From: a virus
IMG/VR virus record: IMGVR_UViG_3300049740_003016
Location: 97,236-161,235 of that record
DNA length: 64,000 nucleotides
Strand: one strand, 5' to 3'
Shown piece after piece: positions 12,959 to 53,890 of the stretch (the stretch's first letter is position 1; every line of letters begins with the position of its first letter). Position numbers and translations under genes: made by a program. A model generated the notes under the pieces. The model was not told the origin of the DNA. It did no database searches and saw only the letters and a program-made list of their open reading frames with translations.

Positions 12959-14782
12959 ATGGCAGACCCTAAACAGAACAAATTATTTGGAGCATTAAAA
13001 CGACTTTTTTCAAGTGGAGTTATTGTACGAAATGTCGGTGGAAAAAAACTAAAAGTAGCAGACACCGATAATTTACAGTATTCAAAAAAAACAAGAGACA
13101 AATATGATCGTATGCATACTTTGTATAGTGATTATGCAAACGGATTCAATAATATAGGATTTCAGACTGCACGACTTGAATTGTTTAGTGATTATGAAGT
13201 AATGGACACCGATCCAATTATTTCAAGTGCATTGGATATTTATGCAGACGAATCTACTACACGCAGTGAGTTTGGTGAAATACTAAAAATATCAAGTAAT
13301 GATTCAAATGTTAAAGGTATTCTTGAAAATTTATTTTACGATATATTAAATGTAGAGTTTAATTTATGGGGTTGGATTCGTAATATGTGCAAGTATGGTG
13401 ATTTTTATCTTCATCTTGAAATTGAACCTGAGTATGGTGTGTTAAATGTCAAACCTGTTTCAACATATGAAATGACACGAATTGAGGATATGGATCCTGA
13501 TAATCCACAATTAGTAATGTTTAAACAAGAAGGTCAGTATCGTGCAAATTACGAAAACTATGAAATAGCACACTTTAGATTGCTCGGAGATACAAATTAT
13601 CTTCCTTATGGAAAAAGTATGGTTGAGGCTGCTAGACGAACATGGAAGCAACTTCAACTCATGGAAGATGCTATGCTTATTCATAGAATAATGAGAGCAC
13701 CTGAAAAAAGAATGTTTTATATTGATATCGGTAATATTCCACCAAACGAAGTTGATAACTTTATGCAAAAGGTTATTAATAAAATGAAAAAAGTTCCGTT
13801 TGTTGACGAAAAGACAGGAGATTATAATCTAAAGTTTAATTTGCAAAACATGACTGAGGACTTCTTTATGCCTGTTCGTGGTGGTGATAGTGGAACTCGT
13901 ATTGAAAATTTAGGTGCAATGACCTACGATGGAACGGAAGATATTGAGTATGTTAAAAATAAGATGATGGCTGCACTTAAAATACCAAAAGCATTTTTAG
14001 GATACGAAGAAGGTATAACTGGTAAAGCAACATTGGCTGCCGAAGACATTAGATTTGCAAGAACAATTGAGAGATTACAGAGAATCACGATAAGTGAGTT
14101 GACAAAGATTGCAATAGTTCATCTTTATTCACAGGGTTACACAGATGCCAAATTAGTTGATTTTAATTTAAAATTGACCAACCCTTCTACAATTTTTGAA
14201 GAAGAACGTGTAAGAATATTGTCAGAGAAATTATCTACTGCACGTGATATGGTTGATGCAAAAATGTTTTCAAAAGATTGGGTCTATGATAAAATATTTG
14301 GTCTTGCAGAAGACGAGGTTAATGAAATTAGAAGTAACTTTGTGGACGATGCAAAGGAATTTTTCCGACTTGAAAGTATTCAAAATGAAGGAAATGACCC
14401 GGCTGACCCAACTCAAAATCAGACAGATACAGAAGATGATGGGTGGGGTTTTGGTAAACTTAGTGACGAAGAAAAGCAAGAAAAAATACATCAACGTGAA
14501 AAAGACGAAAACAAAAGAAAGAATGACGGAAAAAAATACGATCATCCGGATGATAAACCAATGGGCCGTGATAGACTCGGTGCGGATGAAAGACGGAATT
14601 CTGGACGAGATTGGGGTGATAGTCCTCTAAAACTTGAAGCAGATTTGCAAAAGTTAGATTCTTTCTTGAAAACTTCTAAAAAAAGTGAAACAAAAATTGC
14701 AAAGTTATTAACAGAAAGTGAAGAAAAATCAAAAGATGATAATAGCAATTTTTTAGGTGAAGATAATTTAATTGAAAAATAA
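12959..14782 (+). CDS. 20: portal protein (gp20-like)
   Basis: The dodecameric portal forms the unique vertex through which DNA enters and leaves, and onto which scaffold and neck assemble. The sequence has the gp20 organisation: an N-terminal FSDYEVMDTDPIISSALDIY region, the wing and stem region with LEIEPEYGVLNVKPVSTYEM, AHFRLLGDTNYLPYGKSMVE, and EDIEYVKNKMMAALKIPKAF with LGYEEGITGKATL. At 607 residues it is longer than T4 gp20 (524), mostly from an acidic/basic low-complexity C-terminus (after about 470) that ends with a KLLTESEEKS segment similar to gp21 processing sites. It starts with a good AAGGT Shine-Dalgarno. Identification is firm. Confidence 0.92.
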   Translation: MADPKQNKLFGALKRLFSSGVIVRNVGGKKLKVADTDNLQYSKKTRDKYDRMHTLYSDYANGFNNIGFQTARLELFSDYEVMDTDPIISSALDIYADESTTRSEFGEILKISSNDSNVKGILENLFYDILNVEFNLWGWIRNMCKYGDFYLHLEIEPEYGVLNVKPVSTYEMTRIEDMDPDNPQLVMFKQEGQYRANYENYEIAHFRLLGDTNYLPYGKSMVEAARRTWKQLQLMEDAMLIHRIMRAPEKRMFYIDIGNIPPNEVDNFMQKVINKMKKVPFVDEKTGDYNLKFNLQNMTEDFFMPVRGGDSGTRIENLGAMTYDGTEDIEYVKNKMMAALKIPKAFLGYEEGITGKATLAAEDIRFARTIERLQRITISELTKIAIVHLYSQGYTDAKLVDFNLKLTNPSTIFEEERVRILSEKLSTARDMVDAKMFSKDWVYDKIFGLAEDEVNEIRSNFVDDAKEFFRLESIQNEGNDPADPTQNQTDTEDDGWGFGKLSDEEKQEKIHQREKDENKRKNDGKKYDHPDDKPMGRDRLGADERRNSGRDWGDSPLKLEADLQKLDSFLKTSKKSETKIAKLLTESEEKSKDDNSNFLGEDNLIEK

Positions 14783-14805
14783 TTAGGTAAAATCTATTTT
14801 ATATT

Positions 14806-14815
14806 TATATTTATA
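14806..14815 (+). promoter_or_regulatory. late-promoter-like motif
   Basis: TATATTTATA between the portal gene and the gene at 14846, about 30 bases before its GTG start. Promoter role inferred from recurrence. Confidence 0.4.
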
Positions 14816-14845
14816 GTCATATATATATTAAGACACTACATCGAT

Positions 14846-15715
14846 GTGAAAAAACTAAAACATAGTAAATACAAAAACACAGGCATTTTGTTCGAACTTT
14901 TGGTCAGACAAATAACGGCTGATGTATTGGATGGCAATACAGCATCAGATGCAAATAAGTTACTAAAAAAGCATTTCGCAGAGAATACTGCATTGGGAAA
15001 AGAGCAAAGATTATATCAACTATTGATAGAAGAAACAACCGGTGATTCTTCAAAGGCAGAGTCTTTGTTGTCGGTGGTTGTTGAAAATCATAAAAAATTA
15101 ACTCAAAAAGAATTAATAGATGCTCGTTATAATTTGGTAAAAGATATTAAAGAGTCTTATCCAATTAATGATTTATTTAGATCAAAGATAAGAAACTATA
15201 AAACATATGCAAGTATTTACAAGTTATTTGAGAGTCACAATCCATTAGTTTATTGTGATCCGAAAGAAATTTATGAATCAAAAAACACCATCTTAAAAAG
15301 TTTGTGCTCCCGCACTTCTGAAAAAAATGAAGTAGTTGATGTTAATGATTATGAAAAGCAAAATGAAGATTTGCGATTAATTGCATACAAATTACTCGTA
15401 GATAATTTTAATAAAAAATATAGTTCACTTGACGAGTCTCAACAAACTTTACTTAAAAATTATATAAATAATATATCAAATACAAATAGTTTGCGTGAGT
15501 ATATAAACAAACAAGTTCCTTCGATAAAAAATAAAATTAACAAATATTCACAATCAATTGATGATGATGTAGTTAAAATAAAACTAAAAGAAGTTATTTC
15601 TCAACTTGATAAAACAACTGCGGGTAAAGTTGTGAGAGATTCCCAGGTATCAACCATTCTTATTAGTTATGAGTTAATTAAAGAATTGAAGAGACACACA
15701 GATGAAAAAAAGTGA
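14846..15715 (+). CDS. conserved-looking head-region protein, 289 aa
   Basis: No named family was recognised. The protein is helical and basic, beginning KKLKHSKYKNTGILFELLVRQ, with a central RSKIRNYKTYASIYKLFESH segment. The frame opens with GTG 14846; the ATG at 14844 is out of frame and stops at once. It lies between portal and prohead protease, so a role in prohead core or portal assembly is plausible by position. Its end overlaps the next start by 14 bases. Confidence 0.6.
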   Translation: MKKLKHSKYKNTGILFELLVRQITADVLDGNTASDANKLLKKHFAENTALGKEQRLYQLLIEETTGDSSKAESLLSVVVENHKKLTQKELIDARYNLVKDIKESYPINDLFRSKIRNYKTYASIYKLFESHNPLVYCDPKEIYESKNTILKSLCSRTSEKNEVVDVNDYEKQNEDLRLIAYKLLVDNFNKKYSSLDESQQTLLKNYINNISNTNSLREYINKQVPSIKNKINKYSQSIDDDVVKIKLKEVISQLDKTTAGKVVRDSQVSTILISYELIKELKRHTDEKK

Positions 15716-45252: not shown

Positions 45253-46551
45253 ATGACAATTTATGTCGAGACATTAAATGATTTCCAAGATTTTCAAACT
45301 GGCATAGCAAACGGAACTTGCTTTTTTCATTTTATTTATGATGAAAGTGTGCATCCGATCAAGGTTCAACCATGTGTTTTATTTGTATATCACTTTGAAA
45401 CTGACAAAACATTTGTATTTTCATTTAATCATCCAGATGTAGTTTGTATAAACTATAACATACTAAAAAATTTAGTAAATGTAAATGCAACAAAATTAAT
45501 TTATGATAAAAAGAATGTGTCACATTTTTGTAATATGAATAATTTTATCGATATTAAATTTGATAGGTATACAAAAACACTTAATGAAATTTCATGTAAA
45601 CTCCCTGCGTATAAAGATATCAGGTCCTGTCCAATTATGATACTTAAAAAAAGTTTCGACGATACCTTGAAACTTTTTAAAAATGAAATTTCCAATATAG
45701 ATGTAGATGCTTATACATTTGAAAACGAATTCTCAAGACAACTATCTAATATAGAAAAAAATGGAATTTATGTGAATAGATCAATGTTCAATATAGGAGA
45801 TGTATCATTGTTAGATGATGATGATCTAATTTATAGTCAATATAATATCTTAACCCCAGCGAATAGACCAAGTAATCGTTTTTCAAAAATAAACTTTGCG
45901 GCTTTAAATAAAAAGAAAAATGAACGAGATTCCATTTGTAGTCGGTATGAAGATGGTGCTATTGTAATGGTGGATTACGAGAGTTATCATTTAAGATTAT
46001 TTGCAGACTATGTGAGATTTGAATTACCAAAATCTTCTTTGCATGAATACCTTGGAAAATTATATCACGATAAAGAAACACTAACCGAGGAAGAGTACGA
46101 GTTGTCCAAGAAAATTACTTTTAACATAATGTATGGTGGTGTCTCTGATGATATACGTAATAATATTCCGTTCATGGCAAAAATAGCAGATTATGCGGAG
46201 AATATGTATAAAAAATATTTAGAAGATGGTTTTGTTAATACGTGGTATTTTAATCGTAAGATGAGATACGAAACCTACGGTAAATTAAATCCCTATAAAT
46301 TATTTAATTATCTTTTACAAAATGCCGAAACTGAACGAAATTGTTTAATGATGAAAAATATTCACTCGGTTATTGAGAATACGGATGTTAAATTAATACT
46401 CTATCATTACGATGCATTTATATTTGACATGAAGTCAACCGACTTTATTTTGACCAAGAAAATTAAAAGTAAACTACACGAAGATGGTAAATTTCCTGTA
46501 AAGTTTTATGCGGGAATAAACTATGGCAATATGAAATTAGTTAATGTTTGA
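45253..46551 (+). CDS. compact, divergent family A DNA polymerase-like protein
   Basis: The C-terminal 230 residues have the Pol I palm/fingers motifs. Before motif A, QYNILTPANRPSNRFSKIN parallels the TGRLSS region. Motif A is VDYESYHLRL (D241), with His246 where Pol I has Glu. Motif B is KKITFNIMYGG (K286, F290, Y294), lacking the upstream Arg. Motif C is YHYDAF (D387), where Pol I has HDE. Both catalytic Asp are kept. The N-terminal 150 residues may be a remnant exonuclease-like fold but show no acidic motif. At 432 residues it is shorter than known Pol I or phage T7 polymerases, so thumb and exonuclease parts are reduced. T4 itself uses a family B polymerase; none is in this window. An active enzyme is possible but not assured. 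Confidence 0.65.
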   Translation: MTIYVETLNDFQDFQTGIANGTCFFHFIYDESVHPIKVQPCVLFVYHFETDKTFVFSFNHPDVVCINYNILKNLVNVNATKLIYDKKNVSHFCNMNNFIDIKFDRYTKTLNEISCKLPAYKDIRSCPIMILKKSFDDTLKLFKNEISNIDVDAYTFENEFSRQLSNIEKNGIYVNRSMFNIGDVSLLDDDDLIYSQYNILTPANRPSNRFSKINFAALNKKKNERDSICSRYEDGAIVMVDYESYHLRLFADYVRFELPKSSLHEYLGKLYHDKETLTEEEYELSKKITFNIMYGGVSDDIRNNIPFMAKIADYAENMYKKYLEDGFVNTWYFNRKMRYETYGKLNPYKLFNYLLQNAETERNCLMMKNIHSVIENTDVKLILYHYDAFIFDMKSTDFILTKKIKSKLHEDGKFPVKFYAGINYGNMKLVNV

Positions 46552-46561
46552 GAAAAGAATT

Positions 46562-46571
46562 GATATTTATA
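46562..46571 (+). promoter_or_regulatory. late-promoter-like motif
   Basis: GATATTTATA about 35 bases before ATG 46607. Confidence 0.35.
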
Positions 46572-46606
46572 TGTATATTTTAATTTTTAAATGGTTATAT
46601 AAGTAC

Positions 46607-47005
46607 ATGAAAACTCAATTGTTATGCACCTTCTCTCAGATAAATGATTATCGTATGGTGATTAACAAAATAACAAACTTTTACAAAATAGTATTTGGAA
46701 AAGTTTATGTATTGCAAAACAAAGATGATGTAGATGAATTAATGTTGACATATAACATCGACGCAGATGTTTGCACTCAATCTAGTTTTTTTCCAGACAC
46801 AATAAGTGTGCATAGGAAAAAAGATTCAAATACACTTTACACCATTAACTCACTTAATGGGTTGATTAAAAAACTTAATAATGGTGTTTTGGACACTGCT
46901 TATTCAATAAATTGGAATGACTATAAAAATACAATATTATTGACAGACTCTGACAAGGGTGTAAGATTAGTGCCAACAAAACTTTACGAAATCATAAAAA
47001 TTTAA
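46607..47005 (+). CDS. small conserved-type protein, 132 aa
   Basis: I prefer ATG 46607 (KTQLLCTFSQIND) to the overlapping ATG 46544, because the first 21 residues of the longer frame are an atypical hydrophobic tail and small phage proteins with a similar MKTxLLCTF start exist. The fold looks alpha/beta: KIVFGKVYVLQNKDD, then a SLNGLIKKLNNG helix. Function is unknown. Confidence 0.5.
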   Translation: MKTQLLCTFSQINDYRMVINKITNFYKIVFGKVYVLQNKDDVDELMLTYNIDADVCTQSSFFPDTISVHRKKDSNTLYTINSLNGLIKKLNNGVLDTAYSINWNDYKNTILLTDSDKGVRLVPTKLYEIIKI

Positions 47006-47049: not shown

Positions 47050-49152
47050 ATGGAAAATAAAAAACGACAAAAAGAAAACAAAGAAGACACTCAAAAGCAT
47101 CTCGCATCGTTAATTACGGCTGATAACAATGATGCGGTAAGCACATATGAGTCTTTAAATTGGACAGGTACATTTTGGGATTATGTAGAAATGTTGGAAC
47201 AAAATCCAAGTATTGCAAAAAATTCGTATCAAAGACTTTACGACATGGTTATGTCACATGGTGTAGAAGAATTTACTTATTGTAAACGTAAACACATTAA
47301 GTATAAGTTTTTCGAGGGTCTTGGGGACATTTCTATTTATGGTCTTGAAGAAAATTTGATGGAATTTATGGATATTCTTAAAAGTGCAAGTAGACACTAT
47401 GGACCAGAACGACGTGTTATTTTATTACACGGTCCGGTAGGAAGTAGTAAGTCAACTATTGTAACTGCACTTAAAAAGGGTCTTGAGCAATACACACAAA
47501 CTGAAGAAGGTGCTTTATATTCATTCAGTTGGAAGGTTTCTGATAAAGATGGAAACGAAGTCATTGTTCCATGCCCAATGAATGAAGAACCTTTGAAACT
47601 TTTACCAGACGATGTGCGTAATGAAATTATTTCTAGATTAAATGCACAACGTAGTGATGATGACTATAAACTTAAATTAGATGGTGCATTGAATCCGGTT
47701 AATGAGTTTTACTATAATCAATTAATGGAGATGCACGGAGGAGATTACAGAAAGGTACTCGATCATATTGTCGTACGTCGTGTTACTCTTTCAGAAAAGA
47801 ATCGTGTCGGAATCGGTACTTTCCAGCCGAAAGACGAAAAGTCACAAGACGCAACCGAGTTAACAGGTGATATTAATTATCGCAAGTTGGCAGAATACGG
47901 AAGTGAAAGTGATCCACGTGCATTTGATTTTGATGGTGAATTTTTAGTATCAAATCGTGGACTCATTGAGTTCCAAGAAATTCTTAAACTTCAAACTGAG
48001 TTTTTATATGACTTGTTGGGTGCTACTCAAGAACACCGTGTTAAACCACGTCGTTTTAATCAAGTACCTATTGATGAAGTTATTCTTGGACACACCAATA
48101 ATGCTGAGTTTGAAAAGTTAACAAACAATAAATTTATGGAAGCACTTCGTGATAGAACTATCAAGATTGACATTCCTTATCTTCTTAAAATTGACGAAGA
48201 AAAGAAAATCTATGATCACTTCTACAACACGGATACTGTAAATAAACACATTGCACCTCATACAACTTATTTGGCTGCATTGTTTGCAGTTGTAAGTCGT
48301 TTGGAAGAAAGTTCAAAGCAAGACATGAGCATCATTCAAAAAGCAAAACTTTACAATGGTCAAAGTGTACATGGATTCACAGATGAACACGTTAAAGAAA
48401 TGCAAGAAGAATCTCCAAAAGAAGGATTGTATGGTGGAGTATCTGCTCGTTTCGTTCAGAACCAGTTTTCTAATGCAATCGTTAATCCAAGAATGGGTGC
48501 TAAGAGTTTGAATCCTTTCATGTTGTTTGCACAAATCCGTGAAGGACTTAAAAGTTATAGTGGATTTTCATCGGAAGATGATAAGAAGAACATGATGGAA
48601 CGGCTTGAATCTGTTGAAAAGGAATACGATAGAATTGTGAAACGAGAAGTACAACAAGCACTTAGTAGCAGTGAAGAAGCAATAAAAGCACTTTGTACAA
48701 ATTACATTGATAATATCGTTGCATACATTCAAGACGAAAAAGTTACCAATCCAGTTACAGGCAAAGAAGAAGTTGCAAATGAACAACTTATGCGTAGTAT
48801 CGAAGAAAAGATTGGTATTTCCAATGGTATGAAGGATGACTTCCGTAGAGAAATTATGAACTATATGGGTGGACTTGCCGCCAAGGGTAAAGAATTCAAG
48901 TATGATTCAAACGAGCAACTTTACAAAGCACTTGAAAAGAAGTTATTTGAAGATACTAAAGATAGCATCAAGTTATCTGCTCTTGCACAAGATACTGCAA
49001 CCGTAGTTGATAAAGAACTTCTTGAAAAGATTGACGCACTTAAGCAACGTCTTATTACATCCTTCGGATATGATGCAGATAGTGCTTCTGATGTTCTTAC
49101 ATATGTAGGTAGTATTTTTGCAAGAGGTGATGCAGACGAAGACGAAGATTAA
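47050..49152 (+). CDS. prkA: PrkA-family serine protein kinase/AAA protein (YeaG-like)
   Basis: A full-length (about 700 residues) PrkA homologue, the bacterial stress kinase called YeaG in E. coli. An N-terminal WTGTFWDYVEMLEQNP segment, Walker A HGPVGSSKST (residues 127-136, K134) and the strongly conserved NRGLIEFQEILK with LLGATQEHRV (about 302-330) are family hallmarks. The PrkA C-terminal kinase-like domain follows. In bacteria it is made under starvation and usually encoded beside YeaH and SpoVR, exactly as here. I chose ATG 47050 because AAGG at 47038-47041 is eight bases upstream; ATG 47044 and TTG 47014 are alternatives. TTGACT at 47014 could be a promoter -35. A phage copy is unusual to my knowledge. 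Confidence 0.9.
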   Translation: MENKKRQKENKEDTQKHLASLITADNNDAVSTYESLNWTGTFWDYVEMLEQNPSIAKNSYQRLYDMVMSHGVEEFTYCKRKHIKYKFFEGLGDISIYGLEENLMEFMDILKSASRHYGPERRVILLHGPVGSSKSTIVTALKKGLEQYTQTEEGALYSFSWKVSDKDGNEVIVPCPMNEEPLKLLPDDVRNEIISRLNAQRSDDDYKLKLDGALNPVNEFYYNQLMEMHGGDYRKVLDHIVVRRVTLSEKNRVGIGTFQPKDEKSQDATELTGDINYRKLAEYGSESDPRAFDFDGEFLVSNRGLIEFQEILKLQTEFLYDLLGATQEHRVKPRRFNQVPIDEVILGHTNNAEFEKLTNNKFMEALRDRTIKIDIPYLLKIDEEKKIYDHFYNTDTVNKHIAPHTTYLAALFAVVSRLEESSKQDMSIIQKAKLYNGQSVHGFTDEHVKEMQEESPKEGLYGGVSARFVQNQFSNAIVNPRMGAKSLNPFMLFAQIREGLKSYSGFSSEDDKKNMMERLESVEKEYDRIVKREVQQALSSSEEAIKALCTNYIDNIVAYIQDEKVTNPVTGKEEVANEQLMRSIEEKIGISNGMKDDFRREIMNYMGGLAAKGKEFKYDSNEQLYKALEKKLFEDTKDSIKLSALAQDTATVVDKELLEKIDALKQRLITSFGYDADSASDVLTYVGSIFARGDADEDED

Positions 49153-49172
49153 TAGTCAACTGATACATTATT

Positions 49173-50327
49173 ATGCCATCTCGTAGAATTAGAGAAGACC
49201 ACGGTGAATACAGAGATATCGTCAAGGGTAATGTTGACGAAAAACTCAAAAAGCACATAAAGGGTGGTCAAAGAATATCACGAAGAGGAAAAGACTTCGT
49301 TGTTGTTCGTGTTCCCCATGTAGAACTTCCAAGTTTTCGTTACGGACAACCTTCCGATGGAAGTGGAATTGGAAACGGAGAAGCAGATGTTGGTGATGAA
49401 GTAGGAGAAGGACCACCCCAAGGTCAGGGGCAAGGTGGTCAACCAGGTGACGGTGGTGAAGGAGAAGGTGAAGGTCACGAAATTGATGTTGGAATTAGCA
49501 TGGATGCTTATTTTGATATGATTGGTGAAGAACTCCGTCTCCCGAATCTTCTTCCAAAAGAAAATGGGGAAATGGTAAAAGAAAAAATCAAATGGAATCG
49601 AATTGCCAAGGTGGGTAACAACAGTCTACTGCATAAAAGAAAAACTCTTAAAAATGCATTCAAACGATTGATTTCAACAGGTGACTACGATGAAAAAGAT
49701 TTATCTAATTTCTATCCCATTAAAGATGACAAAGAATACAGAAGTTGGAGTTCAGTTGAAGTACCTGACACAAACGCAGCCATATTTTTTGTATCTGATA
49801 TTTCTGCAAGTATGGACGAAGAAAAACGAGCACTAATTCGTGAGTTGTGTTGGTATCTTGATAATTGGGTACAAAGATTTTATCAAGAAACACAAGTAAA
49901 ATATATCGTTCACGATCACCATGCACAAGAAGTTGACCAAGAAAAATTCTACAAATATAAAAGTGGTGGTGGGACACAAATCAGTAGTGCGTTTCATTTG
50001 GTGAATGATATTGTAGAAAAAGCATTTCCTTTAAATGAATGGAACATCTATGTATTTTATTTGAGTGACGGAGAAAACTTTGGTTCTGATAACGATTTGT
50101 GCGTTGATTATTTAAAAACAATGCAAAAGTATGCGAACCTAATTGGTATTACTGAAGTCAAGGCAGTTAGAAGTTGGGCTACATTTTTACCACACATTCA
50201 ATCTAAATTATCAAGTGGTGAACTTGATCCTAAAACGATTGTAACTGCATCAATGGATTCTCCGTCTGATGTATTCAAAACTCTACAAAAATTATTAACA
50301 CCTGCCGATGAAGAAGTACCTTTTTAA
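49173..50327 (+). CDS. yeaH: YeaH/YhbH family protein (DUF444, vWA-type)
   Basis: The N-terminus RRIREDHGEYRDIVKGNVDE and ISRRGKDFVVVRVPHVELP are typical of YeaH. A Gly/Glu-rich linker follows (residues about 75-110), then the vWA-like domain with DISASM (D209, S211, S213), GGGTQISSA and LSDGENFG, a metal-site arrangement. In E. coli YeaH is cotranscribed with the YeaG kinase and is linked to stationary-phase physiology. Length is 384 residues, as in bacterial homologues (about 430), so the domain set is complete. It starts 20 bases after the prkA stop. Confidence 0.9.
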   Translation: MPSRRIREDHGEYRDIVKGNVDEKLKKHIKGGQRISRRGKDFVVVRVPHVELPSFRYGQPSDGSGIGNGEADVGDEVGEGPPQGQGQGGQPGDGGEGEGEGHEIDVGISMDAYFDMIGEELRLPNLLPKENGEMVKEKIKWNRIAKVGNNSLLHKRKTLKNAFKRLISTGDYDEKDLSNFYPIKDDKEYRSWSSVEVPDTNAAIFFVSDISASMDEEKRALIRELCWYLDNWVQRFYQETQVKYIVHDHHAQEVDQEKFYKYKSGGGTQISSAFHLVNDIVEKAFPLNEWNIYVFYLSDGENFGSDNDLCVDYLKTMQKYANLIGITEVKAVRSWATFLPHIQSKLSSGELDPKTIVTASMDSPSDVFKTLQKLLTPADEEVPF

Positions 50328-50330
50328 GTT

Positions 50331-51896
50331 ATGGGAATTGCATGGGAAGTAGATAGTTTAAACGAAGGAGTATGTCCAGAATTGGCTGCTCTTATACCTG
50401 AGTGTTTACAGGCTTGTTATGATAATGGACTTGATCCATACCCTTTGGTTATTGAAGAATTTGATGCTGACGAAATAGTTGAGATTGCGGCCTATGGTGG
50501 TTTTCCTGTTCGTTATCCTCATTTTAATTTCGGACAACAATTTGAACAACTTCATCATCAGTATCACTCTGGTATGGGTAAGATTTATGAGATGGTTGTA
50601 AATACTGATCCGACTTATATGTATCTACAACGAAACAATCCTATTGTTGACAATTTAACTGTTGTTGCCCACGCAACTGCACATAGTGATTTCTTTAAGA
50701 ACAACATTATGTTCAAGCATACGAATCGTAATATGATGAATGTCATGGCAAATCATAGTGATAAAATTCGGATGTACATGGACCGTTTTGGTAGAAAGAA
50801 AGTAAAAGACTTTTTGAATGCGGCCTTGGCAATTGATGATTTAATTGATCCGTCTTTATGCTACCGTGAAAGTAGTTTAAAGAAAGCAACGAAGTTTAAT
50901 TTTGAAGACCGACAGCCACGTGAACACGTATCTCGTCTCGAAACGAAAGAATATATGCAGAAGTATGTCAATCCATCTCATTATATTGAGAGACAAAGAA
51001 AAGAACGTGAGGAACGACAAAAGTTGGCAGAAAATAAATTTCCATTGAAACCTGAACGAGATATTATGTTGATGATAATTAACCATTGTCGTTTAGAACC
51101 TTGGCAACAAAATATTCTCAGCATGATTCGTGATGAGTCTATTTATTATCGTCCACAGGGAATGACAAAAGTTCTCAACGAAGGATGGGCAAGTTATTGG
51201 GATTCGTATATAATGGCAACTTGCAACTTTGCTGGTGATGACGGAATATTTGATTACGCAAAACATCACGCAGGAGTTCTTGGTGGAAAATACAACATGA
51301 ACAATCCATATAAACTTGGAAATACTTTATTGCGTGATATTGAAGACCGTTGGAACAAAGGTAAGTTTGGTAAGGAATATGAAAATTGCGACAATGGGGA
51401 TGAAAAAAGATATTGGAATAAGCATCTCAATCTTGGTCGTGAAAAAATATATGAAGTTCGTGAGATGTATAATGATGTTACTTTCTTAAACGAATTTTTT
51501 ACAAAAGAGTTTTGTGAAAAACATGAATACTTTGAGTATGCTTTAGATAAGTCAACAAACAAGTATGTTGTAGTAAGCAAAGACTACAAAAAAATAAAAG
51601 AGAAACTTGTTAATCGTCATGTTAATATGGGAAGACCTGTAATTTATATGGAGAATATGAAATATCAAAATACAGAAATCCTACTAAGACATGATTTTGA
51701 AGGTCGTCCACTTGATTTAAAATACGCAACCGGTACTATGGCATATCTGCATGAAATTATCAAGAAACCAATCAACCTTTTAACTTATGATGTTGAAACT
51801 GAGGGTTATGGTGAGAATAAAGAGACAATAGAAGTTGAAGTTCGTTATCGTTACAATAACGGTGAACTCAAACGATACGAAGGAAGCAAGATATAA
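50331..51896 (+). CDS. spoVR: SpoVR family protein (YcgB-like)
   Basis: A full-length (521 residues) SpoVR homologue. Conserved blocks are EIAAYGGFPVRYPHFNFGQQ, HHQYHSGMGKIYEMVVNTDP, AHATAHSDFFKNNIMF, and later PWQQNILSMIRDESIYYRPQ with VLNEGWASYWDSYI. Several His and Glu in these blocks suggest a metal site. Bacterial SpoVR/YcgB is RpoS- or sporulation-controlled, and its biochemical role is not established. It starts three bases after the yeaH stop, so the three genes form one transcript. Confidence 0.92.
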   Translation: MGIAWEVDSLNEGVCPELAALIPECLQACYDNGLDPYPLVIEEFDADEIVEIAAYGGFPVRYPHFNFGQQFEQLHHQYHSGMGKIYEMVVNTDPTYMYLQRNNPIVDNLTVVAHATAHSDFFKNNIMFKHTNRNMMNVMANHSDKIRMYMDRFGRKKVKDFLNAALAIDDLIDPSLCYRESSLKKATKFNFEDRQPREHVSRLETKEYMQKYVNPSHYIERQRKEREERQKLAENKFPLKPERDIMLMIINHCRLEPWQQNILSMIRDESIYYRPQGMTKVLNEGWASYWDSYIMATCNFAGDDGIFDYAKHHAGVLGGKYNMNNPYKLGNTLLRDIEDRWNKGKFGKEYENCDNGDEKRYWNKHLNLGREKIYEVREMYNDVTFLNEFFTKEFCEKHEYFEYALDKSTNKYVVVSKDYKKIKEKLVNRHVNMGRPVIYMENMKYQNTEILLRHDFEGRPLDLKYATGTMAYLHEIIKKPINLLTYDVETEGYGENKETIEVEVRYRYNNGELKRYEGSKI

Positions 51897-51899
51897 TAA

Positions 51900-52658
51900 G
51901 TGAAACCTTTGGGTGACCAAGTTCATAATTGTGATAATTTATCACTTTTAAAAAAACTTGATACAAACTGTATTGATTTAATTTATTGTGACATTTTATA
52001 CGGAACAGGTAAAAAATTTAAAGATTATCAAGATTTAGAACCTGACCGACAGATCATTGATACTCATTATATTCCTCGTTTACACGAAATGAAACGAGTA
52101 TTAAAAACATCAGGAACAATTTATTTGCAAATGGATTTAAGAATTGTTCATTGGATACGTATTTTGATGGATAGTGTGTTTGGATATGATAATTTTAGAA
52201 ATCAAATTGTTGTTAAATTTAATATCGGTGGTCGTGGAAAAAAAGAGTTTGCAAAAAAGCATGATTATATCATAGTTTACACGAAGTCAGACGAGTTTGT
52301 TTTTAATGATATGGATATTCGTATTCCATATAAATCCGTAATCAGTAAAAAACAAGATAGACCAAACATCACAGACGAAAAATTAAAAATTGGAACGATA
52401 CCTACAAATGTTTGGGACGATATTCCTTCCGGCCTGAAGGTAAAAAAGGCAACTGATTATTATAGTGAAAAGCATCCTAAAATTTTAGAAAGAATAATCA
52501 AAGCAAGCAGTAACGAGGGTAATGTTGTTGCAGACTTTTATTGTGGAAGTGGAACTACATTGGATGTTGCTAAAAGTTTGAACCGTAAATTTATTGGATG
52601 TGACATCAACCCAAATGCAGTCAAAATTTCTAAAGAAAGATTGAGCAAAAAAAGTTAA
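51900..52658 (+). CDS. DNA methyltransferase (N4/N6, beta-class order)
   Basis: Catalytic motif IV lies near the N-terminus as DILYGTG (D31) and SAM motif I near the C-terminus as DFYCGSGTT (from D212), followed by FIGCDINPNAV. This is the circular order of beta-class amino-methyltransferases. The usual DPPY reads DILY, which may alter base or activity. The target-recognition region lies between (about 100-190). No restriction partner gene is adjacent, so it looks like an orphan enzyme protecting phage DNA or altering host regulation. GTG 51900 starts three bases after the spoVR stop, placing it in the PrkA unit. Confidence 0.75.
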   Translation: MKPLGDQVHNCDNLSLLKKLDTNCIDLIYCDILYGTGKKFKDYQDLEPDRQIIDTHYIPRLHEMKRVLKTSGTIYLQMDLRIVHWIRILMDSVFGYDNFRNQIVVKFNIGGRGKKEFAKKHDYIIVYTKSDEFVFNDMDIRIPYKSVISKKQDRPNITDEKLKIGTIPTNVWDDIPSGLKVKKATDYYSEKHPKILERIIKASSNEGNVVADFYCGSGTTLDVAKSLNRKFIGCDINPNAVKISKERLSKKS

Positions 52659-53059: not shown

Positions 53060-53890
53060 ATGGCAATTGACCTAGATAAAATCAAAGCAAAACTTACGAA
53101 CCTCTCTCAGAGTAACAATCGTAAGAACTATCAATGGAAACCCCAACCTGGAAAGCAACAGGTTCGTATCGTGCCTTACAAGCATCAACCAGATAATCCG
53201 TTTATTGAGTTGTTTTTTCATTACGGAATCAACAATCGGACTTATCTTTCTCCCAAGTCATTTGGTCGTCCAGACCCTATTGTTGAGTTTGCTGAAAAGT
53301 TAACTCGTAGTGGAGATAAAGATGATTATCGCATGGGACGTTCTCTTATGCCAAAAATGAGAACTTTTGTTCCTGTCATCGTTCGTGGTGAAGAAGCAGA
53401 AGGTGTTAGGTTTTGGGGATTTGGTAAAGAAGTTTACCAAGAACTATTAGGAGTCATTGCAGACCCCGATTACGGAGACATTACCGATGCAACTAATGGA
53501 AGAGATATTACAATAGAATTTCTTTCAGCAGAAGAAGCAGGAAGGTCATTTCCAAAGACTAATATTCGTGTTAAACCAAACACATCACCTATATCTGAAA
53601 ATAAAAATATAGTTGATGGTGTTGCCAACAATCAAGCAGAAATCACAGAGATTTATCAAGAATTAAGTTACGATGAATTGAAAGATGCTCTTGAAAAATG
53701 GGTAAGTGGAGAAACTGAAGAAGATGCTCCACCTGCCGAGTCAGTCACAGACAACGCAGTTGTCGTTGAAGAAACACAAAAAGAAGTAAAGCAACCAACT
53801 GTTGCTAGTGCAACTTCTGAACAAAGCAAACCAAACGCAACTTCTACGGAAGATGTAGAGGCTGCTTTTGAAGAGTTGTTCAAGTCTTAA
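53060..53890 (+). CDS. 32: single-stranded DNA-binding protein (gp32-like)
   Basis: Coats single-stranded DNA at forks and recombination sites and loads UvsX and helicase. The N-terminus (DLDKIKAKLTNLSQSNN) and KNYQWKPQPGKQQVRIVPYK with NPFIELFFHYGIN match the gp32 basic segment and OB fold, and GVRFWGFGKEVYQELLG follows. The C-terminus is acidic and ends VEAAFEELFKS, the protein-interaction tail. T4 gp32 has a zinc site with Cys and His; this protein has no Cys at all, so the zinc ribbon is lost (YLSPKSFGRPDP stands in its place). It leads the replication cluster and is followed by a large hairpin. Confidence 0.88.
   Translation: MAIDLDKIKAKLTNLSQSNNRKNYQWKPQPGKQQVRIVPYKHQPDNPFIELFFHYGINNRTYLSPKSFGRPDPIVEFAEKLTRSGDKDDYRMGRSLMPKMRTFVPVIVRGEEAEGVRFWGFGKEVYQELLGVIADPDYGDITDATNGRDITIEFLSAEEAGRSFPKTNIRVKPNTSPISENKNIVDGVANNQAEITEIYQELSYDELKDALEKWVSGETEEDAPPAESVTDNAVVVEETQKEVKQPTVASATSEQSKPNATSTEDVEAAFEELFKS

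What the first reader, a model, noticed from the sequence alone, without database searches (positions are those of the whole stretch)
47050..51896. A complete PrkA-YeaH-SpoVR stress module in a T4-type phage
Three consecutive full-length genes match the bacterial yeaG-yeaH-ycgB (PrkA, DUF444, SpoVR) set, with all family motifs and gaps of 20 and 3 bases, between tail and replication genes. In bacteria these proteins are tied to starvation and stationary phase, and their biochemistry is poorly known. Carriage as an intact unit suggests the phage uses it to set host metabolism, or to survive infection of starved cells. A phage-encoded copy may act on its own host's proteins.
Basis: partly seen in the sequence, partly recalled or inferred. 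Interest (0 to 1): 0.85.

Follow-up and report, generated by a model that had tools for sequence, protein, structure and literature searches.

The report
Phage-borne PrkA–YeaH–SpoVR stress operon
A T4-type virus of bacteria carries a complete, well-kept copy of a three-gene bacterial stress operon that many other large phages also carry; it is real and clearly useful to them, but not unique, and the 'kinase' label on its first gene is doubtful.

Summary
PrkA (47050-49152), DUF444/YeaH (49173-50327) and SpoVR (50331-51896) are full length, on one strand and in order, between tail genes and gp32/UvsX of a T4-type phage. All AAA+ and MIDAS residues, and the residues invariant in SpoVR, are intact.

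It is not a rarity. Of 80 related IMG/VR loci, all 76 not cut by a contig end keep all three genes in this order. Described Thermus phages (phiYS40, TMA, phiLo, MN1) already hold the set; Ralstonia jumbo phage RsoM2USA holds PrkA and SpoVR. Trees need at least four viral acquisitions. In the window's own clade the operon is fixed, evolves as slowly as gp32, and sits at a site that is empty in cousins.

Two corrections. Its closest bacterial relatives are the Myxococcota/Planctomycetota/Chloroflexota type, not E. coli YeaG. The lysine that E. coli YeaG needs in its kinase domain (K426) is Asn here, so I read PrkA as an AAA+ motor, DUF444 as its VWA adaptor and SpoVR as the client or effector. 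A starvation or host-physiology role is plausible but inferred.

Bonus: SpoVR carries inteins at two conserved sites, in phages and bacteria.

The parts
47050..49152 (+). PrkA: AAA+ ATPase with PrkA C-terminal domain, 700 aa
   Evidence: Pfam; full-length match to solved PrkA chain 9xip_A; K134, E307, E310, N350, R369, R417 invariant in 169 sequences
49173..50327 (+). DUF444 (YeaH/YhbH family), von Willebrand A (VWA) protein with complete MIDAS, 384 aa
   Evidence: Pfam; AlphaFold model matches VWA domains in PDB, E 7.5e-9; MIDAS D209, S211, S213, T268, D299 conserved
50331..51896 (+). SpoVR (YcgB family), 521 aa; invariant H114-x3-H118, E284, E87, D382
   Evidence: Pfam; alignments; confident model without PDB look-alike
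51900..52658 (+). N6/N4 DNA methylase, 3 bases behind SpoVR; kept at this place in the window's clade, absent behind the trio in L038, L039, L042 and L043; probably co-transcribed but not part of the core unit
   Evidence: Pfam 1e-42
46544..47005 (+). o153, left flank of the insertion; in cousins L242, L243, L249, L252 and L254 it lies 86-103 bases before gp32 (empty site)
53060..53890 (+). gp32-like single-strand binding protein, right flank of the insertion
   Evidence: Pfam 8e-13, PHROG 1e-22

Best explanation
The phage carries an intact, long-domesticated bacterial operon encoding an AAA+/VWA/effector machine. Shown: three full-length genes, conserved together and in order in phages and bacteria, all ATPase and MIDAS residues kept, strong purifying selection, insertion at a defined site, several independent viral acquisitions and transfer between distant phages. 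Inferred: PrkA forms an ATP-driven ring; DUF444, through its VWA/MIDAS domain, couples the ring to SpoVR in the way VWA proteins serve MoxR-type ATPases (RavA-ViaA, NorQ-NorD); SpoVR, which has an invariant His-x3-His plus Glu cluster and a B. subtilis relative that binds RNA in vivo, is the effector. Made during infection, the machine would push the host into a stress-tolerant, low-loss state so that a slow or nutrient-limited infection can finish. It acts as a host-physiology (auxiliary) module rather than as a replication or structural part.
For: Families, residues and folds. All 76 uncut viral loci hold the three genes in this order. dN/dS 0.062, 0.055 and 0.048 for the trio against 0.055 (gp32), 0.071 (UvsX) and 0.31-0.45 for two neighbouring tail-side genes. 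Third-codon GC equals that of phage core genes, so long resident. Empty site in cousins: 0 of 29 with o153 and gp32 in view carry it; in the window clade every locus that reaches far enough upstream shows it. phA and phB are each one clade for SpoVR and DUF444, and nearly so for PrkA. L042/L043 share about 75% PrkA identity with the window but 33-34% major head protein identity: horizontal transfer between phages. E. [quoted passage not shown] the triplet is co-conserved (PMC2375023); SpoVR crosslinks to RNA in vivo (PMC12456014). The same phage also carries DnaK and two glutamate-dehydrogenase-family genes, which fits a host-physiology kit.
Against: No expression or infection data exist. The PrkA-DUF444-SpoVR complex is not shown here or in the papers read. 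Thermus phages carry the genes next to head and packaging genes, which would also fit an assembly role. The host is unknown, so whether it already has its own copy is unknown. Bacterial phenotypes differ (sporulation, starvation, antimicrobial peptides), so the cellular target is not fixed.
Confidence: 0.55

Rival explanations
1. The AAA+/VWA/SpoVR machine serves the virion: it remodels or matures head, portal or tail proteins (a phage-specific assembly chaperone), and the resemblance to the bacterial stress operon is only ancestry.
For: In Thermus phage Lalka8 the trio lies between portal/minor head genes and TerL, and in phiYS40 near terminase; in the window it lies at the end of the tail region. 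AAA+/VWA pairs mature other complexes.
Against: Close cousins with the same tail and replication genes lack the trio; a related trio serves phages whose head proteins are only 33-34% alike; in phB it lies near DnaE-like polymerase and HldE-like genes, and in the phA relatives L042/L043 none of the window's twelve marker genes is in the flanks.
Confidence: 0.15
2. The operon is a counter-defence or superinfection-exclusion device: the AAA+/VWA pair disarms or senses something in competing phages or host defence.
For: It occupies a variable slot between conserved genes, is exchanged between distant phages, and has a DNA methylase behind it.
Against: Fixed, not variable, within the window's clade and under gp32-like purifying selection; bacterial homologues are found in many phyla. 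No scan of the defence-gene library (padloc) was made.
Confidence: 0.1
3. PrkA is a true Ser/Thr protein kinase and the phage uses it to phosphorylate host regulators.
For: Family annotation; E. coli YeaG K426A failed to complement (PMC4664914).
Against: The K426 column is Asn in all 35 phA copies, Asp in 43 of 44 phB copies and in 79 of 83 bacterial PrkAs, while the AAA+ residues are invariant; purified B. anthracis PrkA showed no kinase and negligible protease activity (PMC13001217).
Confidence: 0.1
4. Passenger cargo, transduced host DNA or a chimeric contig without function.
For: Enterobacter phage LAU1 has YeaG-YeaH at the very end of its record, which looks like that kind of case.
Against: Same flanks in many independent contigs, dN/dS about 0.05, phage-like codon composition. 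Frameshifts in one locus (L027) also hit its helicase gene, so they look like assembly errors.
Confidence: 0.03

Closest known systems
PrkA-YhbH/DUF444-SpoVR operons of Myxococcota, Planctomycetota, Bdellovibrionota, Chloroflexota
   Same: Same three families, same order, near-contiguous, PrkA 50-56% identical
   Different: Carried by a T4-type phage, GC3 ameliorated to the phage; separate well-supported clade
Thermus phages phiYS40, TMA, phiLo, MN1, Lalka
   Same: All three genes in one phage neighbourhood
   Different: Other order (DUF444-SpoVR-PrkA), PrkA about 30-34% identical, separate acquisition
Ralstonia jumbo phage RsoM2USA (PMC8504454)
   Same: SpoVR (ORF28) and PrkA (ORF30) close together
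   Different: Record not held here; a DUF444 gene at ORF29 could not be checked; best BLAST hits are proteobacterial
E. coli yeaG-yeaH and ycgB
   Same: Same Pfam families; AAA+ K116 = K134 here
   Different: About 27% identity; yeaG-yeaH has no SpoVR gene next to it in the E. coli record examined; kinase lysine K426 not conserved in the phage
MoxR-type AAA+/VWA pairs (RavA-ViaA, NorQ-NorD)
   Same: AAA+ ATPase next to a VWA/MIDAS protein; the analogy for mechanism
   Different: PrkA is another AAA+ family, with its own C-terminal domain and a SpoVR partner

Membership tests
PrkA (PF08298 + PF06798) | Both domains over the curated cut-off, full length | tested here: met
   287 and 238 bits against cut-offs of 25; full-length alignment to 9xip_A
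PrkA (PF08298 + PF06798) | Walker A/B, sensor 1 and Arg-finger residues | tested here: met
   K134, E307, E310, N350 and R369 invariant; role names beyond Walker A are my assignment
Ser/Thr protein kinase activity of PrkA | Lysine equivalent to E. coli K426 | tested here: not met
   Asn471 in the window, Asn in all phA copies
DUF444/YeaH (PF04285) | Family score and complete VWA MIDAS (DxSxS..T..D) | tested here: met
   226.5 bits; residues; VWA fold
SpoVR (PF04293) | Family score over nearly the full domain and invariant residues | tested here: met
   360.8 bits, profile 7-405 of 407; H114, H118, E284, E87 and D382 invariant
PrkA-DUF444-SpoVR operon | Three genes adjacent, same strand | tested here: met
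   Gaps of 20 and 3 bases
AAA+/VWA machine (MoxR-like working) | Physical PrkA-DUF444-SpoVR complex, ATP-dependent | not testable with these tools
   No complex prediction or biochemistry available
Starvation/stress module in infection | Expression and fitness effect during infection | not testable with these tools
   Needs a cultured phage-host pair

The most novel reading that the evidence does not exclude
PrkA-DUF444-SpoVR is a widespread, repeatedly acquired and phage-to-phage exchanged takeover machine of large contractile-tailed phages that puts infected cells into a controlled low-metabolism state through SpoVR action on RNA or translation. Phages would then be the best system in which to find the unknown biochemistry of this operon.
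Probability: 0.25. Interest if true: 0.75.

Novelty: new member of a known kind. Interest (0 to 1): 0.5.

Why it matters
The operon is widespread in bacteria but its biochemistry is unsettled (kinase, protease, neither). Phages have taken it up at least four times, keep it intact and pass it among themselves. That shows the three genes are kept as a unit, argues that the conserved AAA+ and SpoVR residues rather than a kinase site carry the function, and offers knock-out systems outside the bacterial background. Single genes were noted before (spoVR as an abundant viral 'sporulation' gene in an oxygen-minimum zone, PMC8940887; PrkA and SpoVR in RsoM2USA), but I found no paper in the held library that treats the set as one viral module, and the endospore reading given there does not fit an operon found in many phyla, among them Planctomycetota and Chloroflexota.

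Tried and rejected
Chimera or host DNA: rejected by conserved flanks in many contigs. Decay: the only broken copies (L027) come with a broken helicase, so probably assembly error. Alternative starts TTG 47014 and ATG 47044: the ATG is lost in the closest relatives L037/L040. PDB relatives of SpoVR: none by sequence and none by fold at E<0.001; the H-x3-H/E cluster looks like a metal site but this stays a guess. ClpP-like protease behind SpoVR in many phB loci: tempting as a PrkA partner, but absent in the window and phA, and PHROGs also call it a head protease. Host: phage DnaK and glutamate dehydrogenase searches were uninformative, since the matches are spread over many phyla and many 'phage' records with these genes look like bacterial contamination. 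Whether phA and phB are one viral clade: support 48, undecided. Virion proteomics of phiYS40: the paper is not held.

Full report
What is there. The three genes stand as described: PrkA 47050-49152, DUF444 49173-50327, SpoVR 50331-51896, all on +, gaps 20 and 3. An N6/N4 DNA methylase begins 3 bases after SpoVR and is probably read with them. ATG 47050 is the conserved start. The contig is a 161,235-base linear IMG/VR record. T4-type identity rests on TerL, portal, head protease, major head protein, sheath, gp32, UvsX, exonuclease, DnaB-like helicase and NrdA.

How common. A scan of IMG/VR with the window's PrkA gave 160 relatives and kept 80 (a lower bound, since six short patterns were used). 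In 76 both partners follow PrkA in the same order; the other four are cut by the contig end; none with room lacks them. Two large groups appear: phA (window and L010-L046, PrkA 74-97% identical) and phB (L047-L089, about 47-50%), the latter on contigs up to 320 kb, plus the 595-kb record LR756511. Described phages with the set are Thermus phiYS40, TMA, phiLo, MN1 and Lalka; 634-642-kb uncultured phages hold all three families, in some with SpoVR far from PrkA. RsoM2USA has PrkA and SpoVR (PMC8504454). Enterobacter LAU1's YeaG-YeaH lie at the record's end and may be host DNA.

Where it sits and how old it is. A scan with UvsX shows that phages with UvsX at least 83% identical carry the trio wherever the contig reaches it (11 loci with the whole interval, 6.0-6.1 kb between o153 and gp32, three more with part of it, plus L015), while 0 of 29 phages at 60-65% with both flanks in view carry it; in five of these o153 and gp32 are only 86-103 bases apart. 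So it was gained at this site in the ancestor of the window's clade (or lost from all cousins). GC3 of the trio (0.23-0.27) equals that of core genes. dN/dS is 0.062/0.055/0.048, against 0.055 for gp32, 0.071 for UvsX, 0.10 for the methylase and 0.31-0.45 for two tail-side neighbours. L042 and L043 have the phA-type trio (PrkA about 75%) in phages whose head protein is 33-34% identical and whose trio flanks share none of the window's markers: transfer between phages.

Origin. The nearest bacterial PrkAs are 50-56% identical, from Myxococcota, Planctomycetota, Bdellovibrionota, Chloroflexota and others, mostly in the same operon order. In the tree phA (100), most of phB (100), L075/L089, the Thermus phages and the huge phages are separate groups; the huge phages fall with proteobacterial YeaG. 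phA and phB are each single clades for SpoVR and DUF444 too (L075/L089 form their own pair for DUF444), so the unit travels together. phA plus phB as one clade has support of only 48. At least four viral acquisitions are needed; no donor phylum can be named.

Parts and mechanism. PrkA keeps K134, E307, E310, N350, R369 and R417 in all 169 sequences. The lysine required in the E. coli 'kinase' domain, K426, is Asn in phA and Asp in most phB and most bacteria (PMC4664914). Purified B. anthracis PrkA had no detectable kinase and negligible protease activity (PMC13001217). I therefore treat it as an AAA+ motor. A solved PrkA relative exists (9xip, 9xiq, 9xir), aligned over nearly the whole length. 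DUF444 has all five MIDAS residues (one Ser-to-Thr in one relative) and models as a VWA domain, with MDN1-MIDAS among the PDB matches. AAA+ plus VWA is the plan of MoxR-type chaperones such as RavA-ViaA and NorQ-NorD. SpoVR has 16 invariant positions over phages and bacteria, among them H114, H118, E284, E87 and D382, a confident model (mean pLDDT 82.6) and no PDB look-alike. Its B. subtilis relative crosslinks to RNA in vivo (PMC12456014).

Inteins as a pointer. The long SpoVR proteins of phB carry LAGLIDADG inteins at two sites: after A287 (NEGWA|S, directly behind E284) and just behind E87 at N91; L080/L081 have both. Bacterial SpoVRs L107, L125 and L172 have inserts at the NEGWA site; in L107 and L125 Pfam names the intein. 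Inteins tend to sit in active-site motifs (general knowledge), so this independently points to E87 and E284 as the working centre. No paper in the held library has both words.

Judgement. The operon is real, intact and selected. Its job in infection is inferred from bacterial phenotypes. The viral set already existed in annotated records, so the finding is a new member of a known kind; what is new is its breadth, its site, its exchange between phages and the evidence against a kinase reading. Interest 0.5.

Noticed in passing
L052, L054, L060, L063, L072, L080, L085 (phB); L107, L125, L172 (bacteria): SpoVR genes carry LAGLIDADG/Hint inteins at two conserved sites (behind A287 and N91 in window numbering); two in L080/L081.
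   Followed up: partly
L090:16735-18666 + (G000 outside the window): Full-length DnaK (Hsp70, 643 aa) in the same phage; also in relatives G001 and G003, and DnaK matches in the huge-phage records that hold PrkA.
   Followed up: partly
L090:12602-13972 - and 13965-15347 -: Tandem pair of Glu/Leu/Phe/Val dehydrogenase genes in the phage; the pair also occurs in relative G003.
   Followed up: partly
phB loci such as L057:13128-13832, L070:13129-13824, L049:13260-13985: ClpP-like serine protease directly behind SpoVR, followed by a DnaE-like polymerase gene, in many phB loci; possible PrkA partner or head protease.
   Followed up: partly
window 45253-46551: 432-aa protein with a weak DNA-polymerase match (PHROG E 3e-4), fast evolving (dN/dS about 0.31), between tail genes and the trio.
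   Followed up: no
L070:14042-16666: DnaE-like polymerase gene interrupted by an intein with homing endonuclease.
   Followed up: no
L042:7980-12777 and L043:7989-12809: phA-type trio in phages with distant T4-type heads (33-34% head protein identity): transfer of the operon between phages.
   Followed up: partly
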